A DNA stretch of 35,164 bases, taken from assembly GCA_012519635.1 (NCBI GenBank), contig JAAYPV010000030.1, positions 1 through 35,164 of the forward strand. The letters are read 5' to 3'. The translations under genes and the position numbers were made by a program. Under the pieces are notes generated by a model, which was not told the DNA's origin, did no database searches, and saw only the letters and a list, made by a program, of their open reading frames with translations. The DNA is from Clostridiales bacterium (GTDB lineage: Bacteria > Bacillota > Clostridia > Oscillospirales > Ruminococcaceae). This document shows, one piece after another, positions 2,638 to 25,408 of this stretch (position 1 is its first letter; each line of letters opens with the position of its first letter).

Positions 2638-5070
2638 TTATTTTTTTTCAATAATTAATTTCTTTAATATAAAAAGATCAATAGAATTGATTTTGTTATC
2701 TGAATTTAGGTCAGAATTATGATAAATTATATTTTCCTTGTTACCAAGAATATATTTTTTAAGAGCTGTAATATCATCAATATTCACAATATCATCTGAA
2801 TTAACATCTCCTAAAACAGGTGTAGAATCGTCCATTCCAAGACTTTGGACATATGCTGTCAGGAATAGTAAGGGAGAGTTCATGTAAACAGTATGTTCAT
2901 TTGTAACCCAGTCGTTATCATTTTCATTATAGCATTTTGCAGCAAAGTTTGAAATTCCTCTAGCATTTGAGGCATTTGGACCACCTGGCATATATCCTGG
3001 AGGTACTTCAGGGATATTGTCATTACTGTAAATTGTACTATAAATTGTAGAAATTGAGTTTTCACCTTGCCCAGTAACAAAGCTTTTACATAGAGGATTT
3101 GATCCAAGCACCCATGAAAGTGTTGAAACAGAGAATGCCTTAACGGTATCAGTTGGCTTATTAAGAAGCTCTGATGCTAAAATTGCCCCCATAGGAATAC
3201 TTACAATTTGATTATTAACTCCCCAATAGTAGTTGCCTTGATGCAGTGTATTGCCCCACGCATTATTATTCCATCTATTGACAATTATGTTTAGCCATTT
3301 ATCGTATTCTACGCTAATCCACTCAACTATTTGTTTATCAGTATTATCAGCCTTTAAGTAATCAAGGAATGCTGTAAAATACATTCTACCCCAGATATTA
3401 GCATAAGCATAGGAGGATTCAAAATATGCTTTCATATATATGTAGTTTTTCTTGAAGTAGTTATGATAAATTTCATCTCTAGTTGCTCTGAACAAGGCAG
3501 CTGATGCCCATAATCTATCCATCGAGTCATCGCTAACTTTATAAACATCACTGGCAACAATATTGTTGGGATTTTGTTCAAGGTATATCCAAGCCTTTTT
3601 TGCAGCATTAAGACAAGTTTTTGCAAATTCTAAGTCAAAATTCTTATACACAATATAAGCCTCTGCAAGAGCTGCTGCAGCACAGGCTGTATCATCAGTT
3701 GTGCAACCCATATTATCGTGAATTATGCGTGTATTGCCATCACCTTGAACTCTTGGATAAAAGCCTCCGCTTTCGCTATCCTGCATTTTTAAGATCCATT
3801 CAATTTCCCATCTTGCCTCATCTAAAATATCCGGAATACCATTTCCACTCTCAGGAATATTTGATTGTCCATCAAAGAATTGCTCAGGAAATCTTTCATA
3901 AGTCCATAGTAAATCAGATACTGCAATACTACCAACATTTACATACTTACCTAAATCTCCAGCATCATACCACCCCTTTGAAACATTGATAGTTTTTTCA
4001 GAGTTAGTACGAAAGCTTGCCTGATAATCACCTGGAGTAGCATCATTTCTAGCAAAAATTCCAGCATATTGGGCATCCAAATCTCCCTGACGCTGAAAAT
4101 AAAAGAATCGAAGCAAGTCCACAATCATACTATCGTAAGCATCATTTCCTATTGTAAAATTCACAGAATTTTCAATACCTTCAGCATCAACAGCTATGTA
4201 ATATCTTCCTTTAGTTTCAAGCTCAGTAAAGTCAGCCTTCAATACCTTTTCACCAGAATCTCTTTCATCGAATTCAGAAACAAGAGTAAGCTTTCCACTA
4301 TATGTAATTTTTTTTGTATCTGAATTTATGACATGAAAGGTAGTACCAACATCAGCAGTAAGCTCTTCTTTAAAACCGGATACTAATGCATATTTATTAG
4401 ATTTTTGAACGAATCCTATCTGATTGACCTTTATTTCAGGATAGGATTTTTCTAAATCTGGTGAATCAATTATTAACTCATTAATCCAAAACTTTTGAGG
4501 TGAATTACCACTTCCACTTATAAGTACACAAGTTATATATTTTAAATCAAGGTATGGATTTTTAGTGGTAAAGTCTTTTAATGGAATTTTAACCTTCTGC
4601 CAGTTTGGAGAAACTGTTATGTAATTAGTAATCGGTAGGTATGATGATTCTTCTTGTTTGCCAATTCTTGAAAAATTATTATCCTTTAATCCGATATTAA
4701 ATGTTTCTCCGCCTTTATCACCAATAATATTAAATTCTATATATCCATTTTCTTCGTATTGTGAAAAGTCATGCGAACACCAGCCACGTACAGTTAACAT
4801 GGATTCCCACCATGATGACGAGCCTGTAACATTAACCCTAAGTGACGGTTTGTTGTTATATTTAACATTTTGGTCAATAGGCAATCCACTGTTTACAATT
4901 TCAAGATTAGTTCCGTATGTCCATCCATCAGAAGTTGAACCATCGGTTACAACATATCTAACAAGTTTTCGGTAGCTTAAATCGCTCTTTGAATTTGCAA
5001 CGGAGCTGATACTAAAACATGATATAAATAAAATAATTGATACAGTAGCAGCCAATACTTTTTTAAGCAT
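2638..5070 (-). CDS. cellulosomal family 9 glycoside hydrolase (CBM - Ig-like - GH9 - dockerin)
   Basis: Secreted endoglucanase-type enzyme of 810 aa. In order: a signal peptide (Lys-rich start, then VLAATVSIILFISCFS); a beta-sandwich carbohydrate-binding module over roughly residues 30-205, perhaps CBM30-like; an N-terminal Ig-like domain opening with KVNQIGF; the (alpha/alpha)6 GH9 catalytic domain with the DAGD motif (GWYDAGDLGKY) carrying the catalytic base and the C-terminal NEHTVYMNSPL carrying the proton donor Glu; and a type I dockerin with two duplicated calcium-binding repeats (DVNSDDIVNIDDITALKKYI and DLNSDNKINSIDLFILKKLI). The dockerin implies docking onto a scaffoldin cohesin encoded elsewhere. 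The track starts 18 nt earlier, but AGGGGG lies inside those codons and positions the ribosome on the ATG at 5070. It is monocistronic; no CAZyme neighbours are in the window. Confidence 0.93.
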   Translation of the reverse strand: MLKKVLAATVSIILFISCFSISSVANSKSDLSYRKLVRYVVTDGSTSDGWTYGTNLEIVNSGLPIDQNVKYNNKPSLRVNVTGSSSWWESMLTVRGWCSHDFSQYEENGYIEFNIIGDKGGETFNIGLKDNNFSRIGKQEESSYLPITNYITVSPNWQKVKIPLKDFTTKNPYLDLKYITCVLISGSGNSPQKFWINELIIDSPDLEKSYPEIKVNQIGFVQKSNKYALVSGFKEELTADVGTTFHVINSDTKKITYSGKLTLVSEFDERDSGEKVLKADFTELETKGRYYIAVDAEGIENSVNFTIGNDAYDSMIVDLLRFFYFQRQGDLDAQYAGIFARNDATPGDYQASFRTNSEKTINVSKGWYDAGDLGKYVNVGSIAVSDLLWTYERFPEQFFDGQSNIPESGNGIPDILDEARWEIEWILKMQDSESGGFYPRVQGDGNTRIIHDNMGCTTDDTACAAAALAEAYIVYKNFDLEFAKTCLNAAKKAWIYLEQNPNNIVASDVYKVSDDSMDRLWASAALFRATRDEIYHNYFKKNYIYMKAYFESSYAYANIWGRMYFTAFLDYLKADNTDKQIVEWISVEYDKWLNIIVNRWNNNAWGNTLHQGNYYWGVNNQIVSIPMGAILASELLNKPTDTVKAFSVSTLSWVLGSNPLCKSFVTGQGENSISTIYSTIYSNDNIPEVPPGYMPGGPNASNARGISNFAAKCYNENDNDWVTNEHTVYMNSPLLFLTAYVQSLGMDDSTPVLGDVNSDDIVNIDDITALKKYILGNKENIIYHNSDLNSDNKINSIDLFILKKLIIEKK

Positions 5071-5284
5071 AAAAATCCCCCTAAACATTACTTAAGTCTA
5101 AAAAAAATCGTACAATGTGAATATAAATAATATTATACATGATTACAGATAAAAAATATTGAATAATTTATGAATTGTAATTAATATTAACTATAATTAT
5201 TTTTAAAATGCCTACAACATTCTACAAAATAATCAAACAACTTGTACTAGAATATTAATTAATAATTTACAGGAGGTAATAAAA

Positions 5285-17380: not shown

Positions 17381-18496
17381 ATGAATTTACAGGAATTAAG
17401 AAATGAAATTGATAAGGTTGATAGGGAGATTTTGAACCTGTTTGTAGAGCGAATGGGTTTATGTGAAAAGGTTGCCCAGTATAAAATTGAAAACTCTCTT
17501 CCTGTTTTTCAAGGGAACAGGGAACAGGACATTATAAATAATATAAAGAAGAATGTTCCTAAAAATCTTTCTAATGGTGCAGTTGCTTTATTCTATAATA
17601 TAATGGATATTAGCAAATGCATACAACAGGAAAAGCTGTTAGATAATGATGTTTTTATGAAACCCTTGACTCTTGATTTAACTCAGCCTAGAAAAGTTGG
17701 ATGTCAAGGAACATATGGTTCCAATTCGGAAATGGCGGCAAAAATACTCTTTGATAAAAGTGAAATTAATTTTTATCACGAGTTTGAAGATGTATTTAAG
17801 GCAGTTGAAAATAGTGAGGTTGATTTTGGTATATTGCCAATTCAAAATTCAACAACAGGCTCAGTTGCTCAGACATACGATTTAATGAAGAAATATAATT
17901 TTTACATAGTAAAGGTAGTGAGGCTTGAAATTTCACATTGTCTTGCAGCAAAAAAAGGGACTAGCCTTTCTGACATAAAAGCTGTTTATTCGCATCCTCA
18001 GGCATTATGGCAATGTTCAGCATTTATTTCTAAAAATAATCTTACTGCTATTCCACATGAAAATACTGCAACTGCAGCAAAATTGGTTTCAGAGAGTGAT
18101 GAACCCATTGCAGCAATCTGTTCAAAACGGTGTGCGGAGCTTTACGGATTTGATATTATTTCAGATAAGATTACAGATTCATATCCAAATTACACAAGGT
18201 TCATATGTATATCAAGGGATTTTAGAATGGATGAAGATGCAAAGAGTATTTCAATGCTGATAACTTTACCCAATAAACAGGGAAGTCTGATAAGGTTACT
18301 AACCAAGTTTTTTGTTAATGGATTTAATTTGGAAAAGATTGAAAGCAGACCAATTGCAGGTGGAAGTTTTAATGTTATGTTCTATCTTGATTTTGAGGGA
18401 AATATCCATGATAAAAAGGTTTCAGCTTTGCTTAGCGGATTAAAAGGTGAATTTGAGAGCTTCAAATTTTTAGGAAACTATAGTGAGATAATGTAA
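17381..18496 (+). CDS. pheA: bifunctional chorismate mutase / prephenate dehydratase (P-protein)
   Basis: 371 aa. It converts chorismate to prephenate and then to phenylpyruvate for phenylalanine synthesis. Residues 1-85 are an AroQ chorismate mutase (LQELRNEIDKVDREILNLFVERM). Residues 103-280 are prephenate dehydratase with GCQGTYGSNSEMAA and the catalytic TRF at 272-274. Residues 290-371 are an ACT domain with the Phe-binding ESRP motif, so end-product inhibition by Phe is expected. It follows mutS2 by 26 nt with an AAGGAG ribosome site and is the only aromatic gene on the plus strand. It faces the aro operon, which supplies its chorismate, tail to tail. Confidence 0.95.
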   Translation: MNLQELRNEIDKVDREILNLFVERMGLCEKVAQYKIENSLPVFQGNREQDIINNIKKNVPKNLSNGAVALFYNIMDISKCIQQEKLLDNDVFMKPLTLDLTQPRKVGCQGTYGSNSEMAAKILFDKSEINFYHEFEDVFKAVENSEVDFGILPIQNSTTGSVAQTYDLMKKYNFYIVKVVRLEISHCLAAKKGTSLSDIKAVYSHPQALWQCSAFISKNNLTAIPHENTATAAKLVSESDEPIAAICSKRCAELYGFDIISDKITDSYPNYTRFICISRDFRMDEDAKSISMLITLPNKQGSLIRLLTKFFVNGFNLEKIESRPIAGGSFNVMFYLDFEGNIHDKKVSALLSGLKGEFESFKFLGNYSEIM

Positions 18497-18534
18497 AAAG
18501 GTTAGGAAGGTATTTGTTTGCCTTCCTAACCTTT
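18497..18534. terminator. bidirectional terminator between pheA and the DUF4364 gene
   Basis: A 14-bp perfect stem (AAAGGTTAGGAAGG with its complement, 10-nt loop). On the minus strand it is followed by TTTTTACATT-like sequence, and the stem overlaps the last base pairs of both flanking genes. Confidence 0.88.
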
Positions 18535-19120
18535 AATTATCAGTTAAATCATATTCCTCTTCCATATTACCCAGAGCAATATTTATAATCTTACTATAAA
18601 ACCCAACAGGATTAAGTAATATTTTTTCACCAATTAGTTTAGCTTGTGTTAAATCTGGTGCGAATAACTTCATATCAATTAAATCGTTTTTTAAATCTAG
18701 ACATCTAAAATGAACATAATATCCATTATCCAACTTAATATATTTAACCGTTACTTCATTATTAAGTTTAAGTTGTGCAAAATACTTTAAAGCAGTACCA
18801 ACTAATTTATCACGAAATGATTTAGGTACATAATGCTTGAATTTCCTTGCACATAATCTTCCCTTATCAGTAAGTACATATTTTTCAATATCATTTTCAT
18901 CAGTTTCAATATTAATTGAGTTATTTTTTATAAGAATATCAATAGCATCTTGATAAAAGAAATAATTAATGATATCTGTACTAACTGCAATTTCAAATAA
19001 TTGTTCTGCTTCAATAGGTTTATCAATCCTATGAAGCAAATAGCAAATTAAAATACTAACAGTATTGACATCCTTTAGTTCAAAGGATGCCATTTCAGAT
19101 AACTTTAAATAGTTTTCCAT
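18533..19120 (-). CDS. DUF4364 family protein
   Basis: 195 aa. Matches the Firmicute-specific DUF4364 family in length and pattern: an N-terminal winged-helix-like region (SILICYLLHRIDKPIEAEQLFEIAV ... YVLTDKGRLCARKF) and a C-terminal strand-rich domain ending NPVGFYSKIINIAL. The winged-helix look suggests DNA binding, but the family is uncharacterised. It is the last gene of the aro operon, 31 nt after aroC, with a modest AAAGGTAA ribosome site. The link to aromatic synthesis may be only positional. Confidence 0.82.
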   Translation of the reverse strand: MENYLKLSEMASFELKDVNTVSILICYLLHRIDKPIEAEQLFEIAVSTDIINYFFYQDAIDILIKNNSINIETDENDIEKYVLTDKGRLCARKFKHYVPKSFRDKLVGTALKYFAQLKLNNEVTVKYIKLDNGYYVHFRCLDLKNDLIDMKLFAPDLTQAKLIGEKILLNPVGFYSKIINIALGNMEEEYDLTDN

Positions 19121-22596: not shown

Positions 22597-23610
22597 TTAT
22601 GAAATTTCCTTTCCAATGAACTTAGCCATTGGCTTAACTTTATCCATAACTTCTTTGAATTGCTTAGGTGTTAAAGATTGTGCACCATCTGATAATGCTT
22701 TTTCTGGACAGTTATGAACCTCAATTATAAGTGCATCTGCACCTGCAACAATTGAAGCAAGTGATAATGGCTCAACCAAGGAAGTAAGTCCGGTAGCATG
22801 GCTTGGGTCAACTACAATTGGAAGATGTGATAATTGCTTTAGTAGTGGAACTGCAGAAATATCAAGTGTATTTCTTGTTTGTGTTTCAAATGTACGGATT
22901 CCTCTTTCGCATAGAATAACATTTTTATTTCCGCCAGCCATGATGTATTCAGCAGACATAAGTAATTCCTCTAAAGTATTTGCAAGACCTCTTTTAAGTA
23001 AAATTGGTTTATTGCAGCGTCCTAAAGCTTTAAGCAGTTCAAAGTTTTGCATATTTCTTGCACCTACTTGAATTATATCAACATCAGCAAATAAGTCAAT
23101 ATGTTCAGTGCTCATAATTTCAGTTACAATAGGCAATCCTGTAACAGCCTTAGCTTTAAGTAAAAGTTCAATACCATCAGCATGCAAGCCTTGAAAAGAG
23201 TATGGTGAAGTTCTTGGCTTAAATGCTCCACCCCTTAACATAGTTGCGCCTGCTTCTTTAATAGCAATGGCAGTTTCAATAATCTGCTCTTCGCTTTCAA
23301 CTGAACATGGACCTGCTATAACTTGTAGTTTATTTCCACCAATTTGTCTTCCACATACATCAATAACAGTATCTTCTGGGTGAAATTTTCTATTACTGTT
23401 TTTGTATGGTTCTTGAACACGGCGAATACTTTCAACAATTGTCTGTGATTTGATTGTTTCAACATCAATTTTTGAAGTATCACCAATAAGTCCTAAAATA
23501 TTTTTATGTTTTCCTTGTATACTAGCAACCGTTACGCCATATTCCTTTAACATCTCTATTAGGTTGTTAACCTGAATCTCGTTAGTATTTGGTTTTAAAA
23601 TAATAATCAT
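22597..23610 (-). CDS. aroF: 3-deoxy-7-phosphoheptulonate (DAHP) synthase, type I beta with FeV-like regulatory domain
   Basis: 337 aa. Condenses PEP and erythrose 4-phosphate, the entry step of the shikimate pathway. Residues 1-70 are the ferredoxin-like regulatory domain seen in the Thermotoga maritima enzyme, which mediates feedback inhibition by aromatic amino acids. The catalytic barrel has VIAGPCSVES, LRGGAFKPRTSPYSFQG, ILLKRGL, ILCERGIRTFE and VVDPSHATG. The start is supported by AGGAGGG 10 nt upstream. It is the first structural gene behind the long leader that carries the aromatic leader peptide and attenuator, so both its synthesis and its activity should respond to aromatic amino acids. 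Confidence 0.96.
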   Translation of the reverse strand: MIIILKPNTNEIQVNNLIEMLKEYGVTVASIQGKHKNILGLIGDTSKIDVETIKSQTIVESIRRVQEPYKNSNRKFHPEDTVIDVCGRQIGGNKLQVIAGPCSVESEEQIIETAIAIKEAGATMLRGGAFKPRTSPYSFQGLHADGIELLLKAKAVTGLPIVTEIMSTEHIDLFADVDIIQVGARNMQNFELLKALGRCNKPILLKRGLANTLEELLMSAEYIMAGGNKNVILCERGIRTFETQTRNTLDISAVPLLKQLSHLPIVVDPSHATGLTSLVEPLSLASIVAGADALIIEVHNCPEKALSDGAQSLTPKQFKEVMDKVKPMAKFIGKEIS

Positions 23611-23690
23611 TGTAGTAATACCCTCCTAAAAATTAATATAAAAATTTGATTGTTTATGAATATGTTTATTATTTCATCTGCAGATAAAAG

Positions 23691-23728
23691 AATACCGTTG
23701 CTTCCGAAAATACAAAAGCAACGGTATT
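23691..23728 (-). terminator. attenuator terminator (3:4 hairpin) of the aro leader
   Basis: On the minus strand AATACCGTTGCTT pairs perfectly with AAGCAACGGTATT (13 bp, 12-nt loop) and is followed by CTTTTATCTG. It lies 81 nt before the aroF start and inside the aro transcript, so it must act as a conditional terminator. Confidence 0.88.
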
Positions 23729-23847
23729 TATAAACATAAAATAGGAAGAATATGTTTAACAATTACAACTTTAGCTTTTGCATTTCGGCACGACAAACAG
23801 ACTCAAAGCTATAAAAGTAGCTAGAGCCTTGCCAAAATGTAAAGTTG
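23704..23847 (-). promoter_or_regulatory. competing 1:2 and 2:3 RNA pairings of the aro attenuator
   Basis: Segment 1 (23830-23847, CAACTTTACATTTTGGCA, codons 8-14 of the leader peptide) pairs over 18 bp with segment 2 (23766-23790), leaving a 7-nt bulge CAAAAGC and one G-U pair. Segment 2 can instead use CCGAAATGCAAAAGC (23774-23788) to pair with segment 3, GCTTTTGTATTTTCGG (23704-23719): 15 bp with one bulged U. Segment 3 includes the last four bases of the terminator's left arm plus its loop, so 2:3 excludes 3:4. An extra 8-bp hairpin (23731-23738 with 23751-23758) fits inside the 2:3 loop. Confidence 0.82.
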
Positions 23848-23870
23848 TAAAATTGATTATTGTTAATCAT
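23763..23870 (-). CDS. aromatic-rich leader peptide of the aroFBAC operon
   Basis: 35 codons, not listed as such in the ORF track. It starts at ATG 23870, 7 nt after GAGGG. Residues 7-22 hold nine aromatics (F7 Y8 F10 F12 W13 Y18 F19 Y20 F22), covering Phe, Tyr and Trp; residues 23-35 hold none. The aromatic codons lie in and just after RNA segment 1. Segment 2 starts at codon 27, and the stop codon directly follows segment 2. In ribosome-mediated attenuation, a ribosome starved for a charged aromatic tRNA would stall on segment 1, freeing segment 2 to form the antiterminator; a ribosome reaching the stop would mask segment 2 and allow termination. The peptide itself probably has no other function. 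The larger 101-codon ORF in this frame has no ribosome site at its start and begins upstream of the predicted transcription start. Confidence 0.85.
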   Translation of the reverse strand: MINNNQFYNFTFWQGSSYFYSFESVCRAEMQKLKL

Positions 23871-23891
23871 AATTGCACCCTCATCATTAAA

Positions 23892-23921
23892 CTTTAATAC
23901 TTTAAACTTTAATACTTTAAA
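23892..23921. repeat. 15-bp perfect tandem repeat at the aro leader 5' end
   Basis: CTTTAATACTTTAAA occurs twice head to tail (23892-23906, 23907-23921), followed by a partial third copy. It spans from just after the predicted transcription start to about 10 nt before the leader-peptide ribosome site. Confidence 0.85.
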
Positions 23922-23931
23922 GACTAAAATC

Positions 23932-23960
23932 AGTATAATATATTTTTTTGCAATAATCAA
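23932..23960 (-). promoter_or_regulatory. sigma-A-like promoter of the aro operon
   Basis: On the minus strand TTGATT (23955-23960) and TATACT (23932-23937) are separated by 17 bp, placing transcription initiation near 23925. That gives about 55 nt before the leader peptide and about 315 nt before aroF. Confidence 0.6.
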
Positions 23961-24142
23961 GAAGTTTCTGTTAATATTCTGTGAATATATTATGAACAAA
24001 ACGCCGTTAGAGTTTAATAATCGGAAAATGTTGAATGATAAGTTATATTGAAACATTTTTTTAATCAAAAATCTCTAGTAATTATGCAAAAAAGATGGTA
24101 TAATAATTTAGTTATATATATTATATAGGTAAGGAGAGTCAT

Positions 24143-25408
24143 ATGTCAATACTATATTCAAGAGAACAAATTTCTGATGGTATCGGCTTTACAAGCATAA
24201 TCGATTCAAAATTTAAAACTAATACTATTAATTTAAAGTTTTTTACAGAGTTAAGAGAAGACGCTGCACCATTAAATGCAGTAACTGCTGGAATTTTAGG
24301 CTCATCAAACAGCAAATATAAAAATTTGACTGAGCTTACAGCGCGACTTAATGCACTATATGGTACAGATATAGGAGTAAATGTAACAAAACGCGGAGAT
24401 ATTCAGGTAATGACCATATCAATAAGCTCAATTGATAATGATTATACTTTAAATGGTGAAGATTTAACTAGTGAAGTATTAAGCATATTTCTTGATTGCT
24501 TGTTTTCTCCATATATAGAAAATGGGGGCTTTGGACAGGAAATATTTAATTTCAGAAAAAAGGATTTACTTGATTCTATTGATTCAGAAATAAATAACAA
24601 GAGAAGCTATGCTATCTTACAGGCACAAAAGCATATTTTTGAGGGTGAGCCAAGTGCAAATTCATCATATGGAACAAGAACAATAGCTGAAAAAATTACA
24701 CCTTTTATGGCATATGAAGCATATAAAGAAATGATTAAAACAGCATATATTGAGGTATATTATGTTGGAGCAAAGGATAATCCTGTAATTAAAGAAAGGT
24801 TTACAGAGGCATTTTTAAAATTATACAGAAAGCCACATAATATCGCACTTAATAATATTAGTCCCATAAAAAATGAAGTAAAAAATGTAAAAGATAAATT
24901 GGATGTAAGCCAGTCTAAAATGGTTATGGCATTTAAAACAAACCATACTGATTTATATGCTATAAAGCTTATGAGTACAATATTAGGAGAAACTCCTTTT
25001 TCTAAGCTGTTTGCTAATGTGAGAGAAAAGCTAAGCCTTTGCTATTATTGTGCAAGTGGTTTTAATGAAAGCAAAGGTACTCTTATGGTTGACAGTGGTG
25101 TAGAAAATGTTAATGTAGATAAAGCACGGGTTGAAATAATAAATCAACTTGAGGACATAAAAAAAAGTAACTTTACTGATGAGGAAATGAACAATTCTGT
25201 TTTAAGCATTATAAATTCACTCAAAGGTGTCAATGACACTCCTACATCTCTTGTAAATTGGTACTTCAGTAGATATTGCAGAGGAGAGATTATCAGTCCT
25301 GATGAAGAAATTAACAGAATAAAAGCTGTAACAAGGGAACAAATAATTGAGGTTGCAAAATCCTTCAAGCTTGATACTATATATGTTATGACAGGGGAGG
25401 AAGAGTAA
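24143..25408 (+). CDS. yfmF: M16-like peptidase homologue YfmF (EF-P 5-aminopentanol modification-associated type)
   Basis: 421 aa with the two-lobed M16 fold pattern (TELREDAAPLNAVTAGILG ... SKLFANVREKLSLCYYCASG). It lacks the zinc motif HxxEH, as is usual for the inactive member of such pairs. In B. subtilis the paired genes (ymfF/ymfH) are needed for the 5-aminopentanol modification of elongation factor P. Start ATG follows AAGGAGAG. A TATAAT at 24099-24104 probably marks its promoter, with only a weak -35. The stop overlaps the start of the partner gene (TAATG), so the two should be made in equal amounts. Confidence 0.85.
   Translation: MSILYSREQISDGIGFTSIIDSKFKTNTINLKFFTELREDAAPLNAVTAGILGSSNSKYKNLTELTARLNALYGTDIGVNVTKRGDIQVMTISISSIDNDYTLNGEDLTSEVLSIFLDCLFSPYIENGGFGQEIFNFRKKDLLDSIDSEINNKRSYAILQAQKHIFEGEPSANSSYGTRTIAEKITPFMAYEAYKEMIKTAYIEVYYVGAKDNPVIKERFTEAFLKLYRKPHNIALNNISPIKNEVKNVKDKLDVSQSKMVMAFKTNHTDLYAIKLMSTILGETPFSKLFANVREKLSLCYYCASGFNESKGTLMVDSGVENVNVDKARVEIINQLEDIKKSNFTDEEMNNSVLSIINSLKGVNDTPTSLVNWYFSRYCRGEIISPDEEINRIKAVTREQIIEVAKSFKLDTIYVMTGEEE

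What the first reader, a model, noticed from the sequence alone, without database searches (positions are those of the whole stretch)
23604..23960. A complete ribosome-mediated attenuator sensing Phe, Tyr and Trp in front of aroF-aroB-aroA-aroC
Seen in the sequence: a promoter, a ribosome site, a 35-codon peptide with nine aromatic codons (five Phe, three Tyr, one Trp) confined to codons 7-22 and none after, and three mutually exclusive RNA pairings. The 1:2 stem is 18 bp and contains aromatic codons in segment 1; segment 2 ends right at the peptide stop codon. The 2:3 antiterminator is 15 bp and takes over part of the terminator's left arm; the 3:4 terminator is a perfect 13 bp. All positions fit the classical mechanism: stalling at any of the nine codons leaves segment 2 free, while a ribosome at the stop codon masks it. 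Known background: trp/phe/his leader-peptide attenuators are classical in Proteobacteria, while low-GC Firmicutes normally use T-boxes or TRAP for these pathways. Inference: this is a leader that integrates the charging of all three aromatic tRNAs to control the common pathway. I am not aware of one described for a clostridial shikimate operon.
Basis: partly seen in the sequence, partly recalled or inferred. Interest (0 to 1): 0.93.

Follow-up and report, generated by a model that had tools for sequence, protein, structure and literature searches.

The report
Clostridial aromatic-pathway attenuator with leader peptide
In front of the genes for making aromatic amino acids, this gut-type clostridium has a tiny test gene whose translation appears to tell the cell whether phenylalanine and tyrosine are running short; the same kind of switch sits in front of the same gene in most of the clostridia examined and seems not to have been described there.

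Summary
On the minus strand, between a promoter-like site and aroF, lie a Shine-Dalgarno site, a 35-codon ORF with 5 Phe, 3 Tyr and 1 Trp codons (all at codons 7-22), a 15-bp antiterminator and a 13-16 bp intrinsic terminator. Computed stalls anywhere in codons 7-22 leave the antiterminator free; a ribosome at the stop codon hides it. An aromatic-rich short ORF plus terminator precedes aroF in 82 of 110 same-family loci and 187 of 269 loci across Clostridia (controls: reverse strands 0/230, shuffles 7/690). The antiterminator pairing, a hairpin inside the ORF and the promoter are also conserved. Leaders are Tyr-richer before aroF-tyrA and Phe-richer before aroF-aroB. In the same genome T-boxes control trpE, tyrS and pheS, but not aroF. 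The mechanism is classical leader-peptide attenuation; aroF attenuators are known or proposed in Corynebacterium and Acholeplasma, and His leaders in clostridia. Sensing of Phe and Tyr is supported by comparison; Trp sensing is not, because Trp codons are not enriched. I found no earlier report for clostridial aroF in the open library. No expression data were available.

The parts
23932..23960 (-). Promoter-like site TTGATT-17-TATACT, 61 nt before the leader start codon
   Evidence: 9 of 12; 85% of homologous leaders have a 10/12 or better promoter a median 35 nt before the ATG, shuffles 3%
24120..24149 (-). Second candidate promoter, perfect TTGACA-18-TATAAT, overlapping the start of the divergent gene
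   Evidence: 12 of 12; use not tested
23876..23882 (-). Shine-Dalgarno site of the leader peptide (GAGGGTG)
   Evidence: Read directly
23763..23870 (-). Leader peptide ORF, 35 codons, MINNNQFYNFTFWQGSSYFYSFESVCRAEMQKLKL
   Evidence: homologues
23805..23852 (-). Aromatic codon zone (codons 7-22: F7 Y8 F10 F12 W13 Y18 F19 Y20 F22)
   Evidence: in homologues 40% aromatic at 9-23 codons before the stop, 10% in the last six
23799..23829 (-). In-ORF hairpin with aromatic codons in its loop (AGGCTC-AGCTA / TAGCT-GAGTCT), candidate RNA polymerase pause hairpin at the tip of the 1:2 structure
   Evidence: conserved and covarying in homologues
23830..23850 (-). Segment 1 (pairs with segment 2 when no ribosome is present)
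   Evidence: 23850-23840 with 23773-23763 and 23839-23830 with 23790-23781
23763..23790 (-). Segment 2, last codons and stop of the leader ORF; 23788-23774 is its antiterminator part
23731..23758 (-). Small 8-bp hairpin between segments 2 and 3
   Evidence: conservation not tested
23704..23719 (-). Segment 3 part that pairs with segment 2 (15-bp antiterminator)
   Evidence: -14.9 kcal/mol as a duplex, stronger than all 200 shuffles
23691..23728 (-). 3:4 intrinsic terminator hairpin, followed by CTTTTATC
22597..23610 (-). aroF, DAHP synthase (337 aa), ribosome site AGGAGGG at 23627-23621
   Evidence: TIGR01361 397 bits
21540..22616 (-). aroB, 3-dehydroquinate synthase
   Evidence: TIGR01357 373 bits
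20227..21543 (-). aroA, EPSP synthase
   Evidence: TIGR01356 371 bits
19152..20252 (-). aroC, chorismate synthase
   Evidence: NF003793 398 bits, TIGR00033 355 bits

Best explanation
A ribosome-mediated transcription attenuator, of the same working principle as trpL, pheL and hisL, controls aroF-aroB-aroA-aroC. RNA polymerase makes the leader and probably pauses at the in-ORF hairpin until a ribosome starts the leader peptide (inferred). With enough charged tRNA-Phe and tRNA-Tyr the ribosome reaches the stop codon, covers segment 2, and the 3:4 hairpin ends transcription before aroF. When charged tRNA-Phe or tRNA-Tyr is short, the ribosome stalls within codons 7-22; segment 2 is then free and pairs with segment 3 before segment 4 is made, and transcription runs into the operon. 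Without translation, 1:2 forms and the terminator forms. The pairings and their dependence on ribosome position are shown by computation; the response to amino acids is inferred from leader composition. Trp is at most a minor input.
For: Anatomy and fold. Stall simulation: the pre-segment-4 antiterminator (19-20 pairs) persists for A-site codons 7-24 and is gone by the last codons; every aromatic codon lies in the permissive range. With the ribosome at codon 22, enforced 2:3 is -25.0 and 3:4 is -28.7 kcal/mol, so 2:3 can win by forming first. Conservation: leader plus terminator in 82/110 same-family, 31/40 other-family same-order and 26/39 other-order aroF loci; controls 0/230 and 7/690. Segment 2:3 pairing is stronger in homologues (-14.9) than after shuffling (-11.6) or with other loci's terminators (-11.4), Wilcoxon p about 1e-20. 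Promoter before the leader in 85% vs 3% of shuffles. Aromatic codons are in frame: F 17.5%, Y 11.1% against F about 10% and Y 1.5-4.2% in the other frames. Y/(F+Y) is 0.475 before aroF-tyrA (n=34) and 0.20 before aroF-aroB (n=37), p = 7e-9 (TyrA identity). In nine genomes with leaders on two AroF genes, the two usually differ, one Phe-rich and one Tyr-richer. In one relative (G200) a T-box replaces the leader at aroF.
Against: No expression data. No close relative of this species could be compared: the other genome of the genus lacks aroF in its assembly, and the nearest AroF (80%, G006) has aroF behind another gene without a leader. The proximal promoter is only 9/12 and the U tract is short. 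At full length the terminator is 3.7 kcal/mol more stable than the antiterminator, so the switch relies on kinetics. For individual homologues the 2:3 pairing beats shuffles at p <= 0.05 in only 34%; the signal is strong only in sum, and the sequences are not independent.
Confidence: 0.92

Rival explanations
1. A true three-way integrator: Trp starvation alone also switches the operon on through the Trp codon 13.
For: W13 lies inside the permissive stall range; 32 of 82 same-family leaders carry one or more Trp codons; aroF supplies Trp as well.
Against: Trp codons are not enriched in leaders: 0.9% in frame vs 1.6-2.1% in the other frames. A single Trp codon gives one stall site. trpE has its own T-box reading UGG in this genome.
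Confidence: 0.25
2. The leader senses free aromatic amino acid through a nascent-peptide arrest (TnaC-like) rather than charged tRNA.
For: A peptide motif [FY][FY]S-x-G recurs in many leaders.
Against: The motif follows from an RNA constraint: Ser after two aromatic codons is AGC in 113/117 cases vs 140/429 elsewhere, and its arms covary as a hairpin. Phe and Tyr interchange freely at the aromatic positions. The terminal residues are not conserved.
Confidence: 0.04
3. A metabolite riboswitch, T-box or protein-controlled terminator; the short ORF is incidental.
For: T-boxes are common in this genome, and a T-box does stand before aroF in G200. Candidate riboswitches before an aroF operon were proposed in Enterococcus (PMC4448216).
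Against: No Rfam family matches at gathering, and none meaningful at E<10. The ORF is conserved in frame with a promoter and terminator around it, and its composition tracks the next gene.
Confidence: 0.03

Closest known systems
Corynebacterium glutamicum aroR leader before aroF (Neshat 2014, as reported in PMC11802643; PMC4046766)
   Same: Leader peptide with Phe and Tyr codons and attenuation in front of a DAHP synthase gene
   Different: Actinobacterium; short Phe-Tyr-Phe run; responds to Phe but not Tyr; no sequence relation tested
uORFC-13-1 motif before aroF in Acholeplasma (PMC8632094)
   Same: Proposed Phe-coding uORF next to an intrinsic terminator upstream of aroF
   Different: Only Acholeplasma and environmental sequences; at least one Phe codon in the consensus; antiterminator not defined in the passages I read
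Enterobacterial pheL and trpL attenuators
   Same: Same four-segment logic: stall zone, 1:2, 2:3, 3:4, stop codon over segment 2
   Different: One amino acid each; different genes and phylum; no sequence relation
His leader attenuators of Firmicutes (PMC9413887, PMC2965389)
   Same: Leader-peptide attenuation in Gram-positives, including C. difficile
   Different: His codons, his operon or hisS; scattered, 17 genomes for the his operon
T-box leaders
   Same: Sense tRNA charging before the same kinds of genes; one stands at aroF in G200
   Different: Bind the tRNA directly; no ORF; no match here

Membership tests
Ribosome-mediated (leader-peptide) transcription attenuator | Short translatable ORF with ribosome site between promoter and first gene | tested here: met
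   conserved in frame in homologues
Ribosome-mediated (leader-peptide) transcription attenuator | Cluster of codons for the pathway's end product, absent near the stop codon | tested here: met
   Nine aromatic codons at 7-22; 40% vs 10% in homologues
Ribosome-mediated (leader-peptide) transcription attenuator | Intrinsic terminator before the first structural gene | tested here: met
Ribosome-mediated (leader-peptide) transcription attenuator | Alternative antiterminator freed by stalling and masked by a ribosome at the stop codon | tested here: met
   Computed only:
Ribosome-mediated (leader-peptide) transcription attenuator | Pause hairpin that couples polymerase and ribosome | tested here: inconclusive
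   Conserved, covarying in-ORF hairpin; pausing itself not tested
Ribosome-mediated (leader-peptide) transcription attenuator | Readthrough rises when the cognate amino acid is short | not testable with these tools
   Needs RNA or reporter experiments
T-box leader (RF00230) | Match to the T-box covariance model | tested here: not met
   seven T-boxes elsewhere in the genome, none on this contig
C. glutamicum aroR-type aroF attenuator | Sequence homology of leader RNA or peptide | not tested
   Only the mechanism and target gene are compared, from PMC11802643 and PMC4046766
TnaC-like arrest peptide | Conserved peptide residues at and before the arrest site | tested here: not met
   Peptides vary; conservation is at RNA level

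The most novel reading that the evidence does not exclude
A Clostridia-wide, undescribed family of aroF attenuators with its own signature: a hairpin inside the leader ORF (locked by a Ser AGC codon) that couples polymerase to ribosome, and a Phe/Tyr codon mix tuned by evolution to the end product of each operon or paralogue, so that isozymes of DAHP synthase are split into Phe-sensed and Tyr-sensed copies without any repressor protein.
Probability: 0.55. Interest if true: 0.65.

Novelty: new member of a known kind. Interest (0 to 1): 0.55.

Why it matters
It suggests that a large group of gut and environmental clostridia control entry into aromatic amino-acid synthesis by reading their own translation, next to T-boxes that do the same job by binding tRNA in the same genome. 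The natural set of leaders with differing Phe and Tyr content, including paralogue pairs in one genome and a T-box replacement at the same gene, makes it possible to test how codon mix sets what an attenuator senses.

Tried and rejected
Rfam at gathering and permissive thresholds: nothing meaningful; of the leaderless loci tested, none carries an Rfam element except the T-box at G200 aroF. First scan of loci misread minus-strand hits because genome-search loci are not turned; corrected. A column-wise RNAalifold of the in-ORF hairpin gave no structure because the register shifts between leaders; per-sequence, chimera and fixed-register tests were used instead. A control at the last aromatic codon with full refolding was weak; the duplex test with shuffle and swap controls replaced it. 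A same-genus comparison failed: no aroF in the only other genome. I considered an aroF-pheA operon behind the Phe-only leader L028, but the strand-aware search did not confirm it, so it is not claimed.

Full report
What is there. The minus strand between 23960 and 23611 holds a promoter-like site, a Shine-Dalgarno site, a 35-codon ORF, and an intrinsic terminator before aroF. The genes behind it are aroF, aroB, aroA and aroC, overlapping by a few codons, followed by a DUF4364 gene. The ORF holds nine aromatic codons, all at codons 7-22. The leader RNA folds far better than shuffled sequence, z = -8.8.

How the pairings behave. I moved a model ribosome along the ORF and folded what remained free downstream, without segment 4. 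For A-site codons 7-24, segment 2 (23788-23774) pairs with segment 3 (23719-23704) in a 15-bp antiterminator; the free part folds at -38 to -20.6 kcal/mol. The pairing shrinks from codon 25 and is gone from codon 33 to the stop. So every aromatic codon allows antitermination and a ribosome at the stop codon forbids it. With full-length RNA and a ribosome at codon 22 the terminator is 3.7 kcal/mol better than the enforced antiterminator, so the antiterminator must win by forming first, as is accepted for classical attenuators. The nine base pairs of the terminator's lower stem could coexist with 2:3 only as a pseudoknot in which 4 nt would span 15 bp; I judge that sterically excluded (inference).

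Conservation. Upstream regions of aroF were taken from the same family (110 loci), other families of the order (40), other orders of the class (39) and the genome-contig collection (80, partly overlapping). A fixed detector (ORF with ribosome site and at least five aromatic codons, then a terminator within 160 nt) finds a leader in 82, 31, 26 and 48 of these, 187 of 269 in all and 182 of 264 after removing duplicates. On the first 230 the controls were 0/230 for reverse complements and 7/690 for shuffles. Two more same-family leaders just below threshold were seen by eye (L052, L059). The other four exceptions that I inspected (L002, L017, L019, L030) have aroF close behind another reading frame and no leader. 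Named carriers include Angelakisella massiliensis, Bittarella massiliensis, Oscillibacter valericigenes, Clostridium mediterraneense and Clostridium cuniculi.

Selection on codons, not only on U-rich RNA. In frame, leaders are 17.5% Phe and 11.1% Tyr; the other two frames give about 10% Phe and 1.5-4.2% Tyr. Aromatic codons make up 40% of positions 9-23 before the stop and 10% of the last six. A promoter of 10/12 or better precedes 85% of leaders against 3% of shuffles.

Covariation. The duplex between the stretch after the aromatic codons and the terminator's left arm and loop averages -14.9 kcal/mol, against -11.6 after shuffling and -11.4 with terminators of other loci; segment 2 typically covers the last seven codons up to the stop. 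Inside the ORF there is a second conserved RNA element. Ser after two aromatic codons is AGC in 113 of 117 cases and in 140 of 429 otherwise. In 39 distinct leaders with the same register, including this one, the outer stem is 74% paired, against 65% on average and 72% at most when 3' halves are dealt out anew 1,000 times, and 29-57% when slid. It encloses aromatic codons and is followed by a U-rich stretch; a pause hairpin is the likely role (inferred).

What it senses. Leaders are Tyr-richer when tyrA follows aroF (median Y/(F+Y) 0.475, n = 34) than when aroB follows (0.20, n = 37), p = 7e-9; within the family p = 0.0025 (TyrA confirmed). Sequences are related, so the p-values are too optimistic. 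In genomes with leaders on two AroF genes the two usually differ, for example F9Y1 and F2Y6 in G068, F9Y2 and F0Y7 in G034, F9Y3 and F3Y6 in G183. This genome shows a single aroF (assembly 84% complete) and a mixed leader (F5 Y3 W1). Trp is not enriched in leaders. T-boxes in the same genome stand before tyrS, pheS, alaS and trpE (specifier UGG in the alignment), and before leuA-, ilvB- and thrS-like genes (the last three were read from sequence only). In G200, of another family, a T-box stands at aroF itself, with UUC at the specifier position as I read the alignment.

Known or new. Leader-peptide attenuation is classical. Attenuators before aroF are reported in C. glutamicum (Phe but not Tyr response; PMC11802643, PMC4046766) and proposed in Acholeplasma (PMC8632094); one sensing Tyr-tRNA was proposed for E. 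coli aroF (cited in PMC2659441 and PMC8632094). His leaders are known in Firmicutes including C. difficile (PMC9413887, PMC2965389). I found no report for clostridial aroF, but subscription papers are not in the library. I therefore call it a new member of a known kind; the breadth, the in-ORF hairpin and the product-matched codon mix are what is interesting.

Noticed in passing
window 24120-24149 (-): Perfect sigma-70 consensus promoter TTGACA-18-TATAAT on the aroF strand, overlapping the start of the divergent yfmF-like gene; it may be a second or the main promoter of the leader transcript.
   Followed up: no
L230 (G200:C65), 380-644: A T-box stands directly before aroF in another family of the order, where relatives have the leader peptide: a swap of sensing device at one gene.
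   Followed up: partly
L290 3013-3303 (own genome contig C14): T-box with specifier UGG before trpE in the same genome; further own-genome T-boxes before tyrS, pheS, alaS, thrS-, leuA- and ilvB-like genes.
   Followed up: partly
leaders in L001-L269: The Ser codon after two aromatic codons is almost always AGC (113/117), a mark of an in-ORF RNA hairpin.
   Followed up: yes
window 2638-5088 (-): GH9 cellulase with CBM30 and a dockerin domain, suggesting a cellulosome-forming organism.
   Followed up: no
window 17381-18496 (+) and 18533-19120 (-): pheA (fused chorismate mutase and prephenate dehydratase) closely follows a mutS2-like gene and is convergent with a DUF4364 gene that follows aroC, so the Phe-specific gene is not in the attenuated operon.
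   Followed up: no
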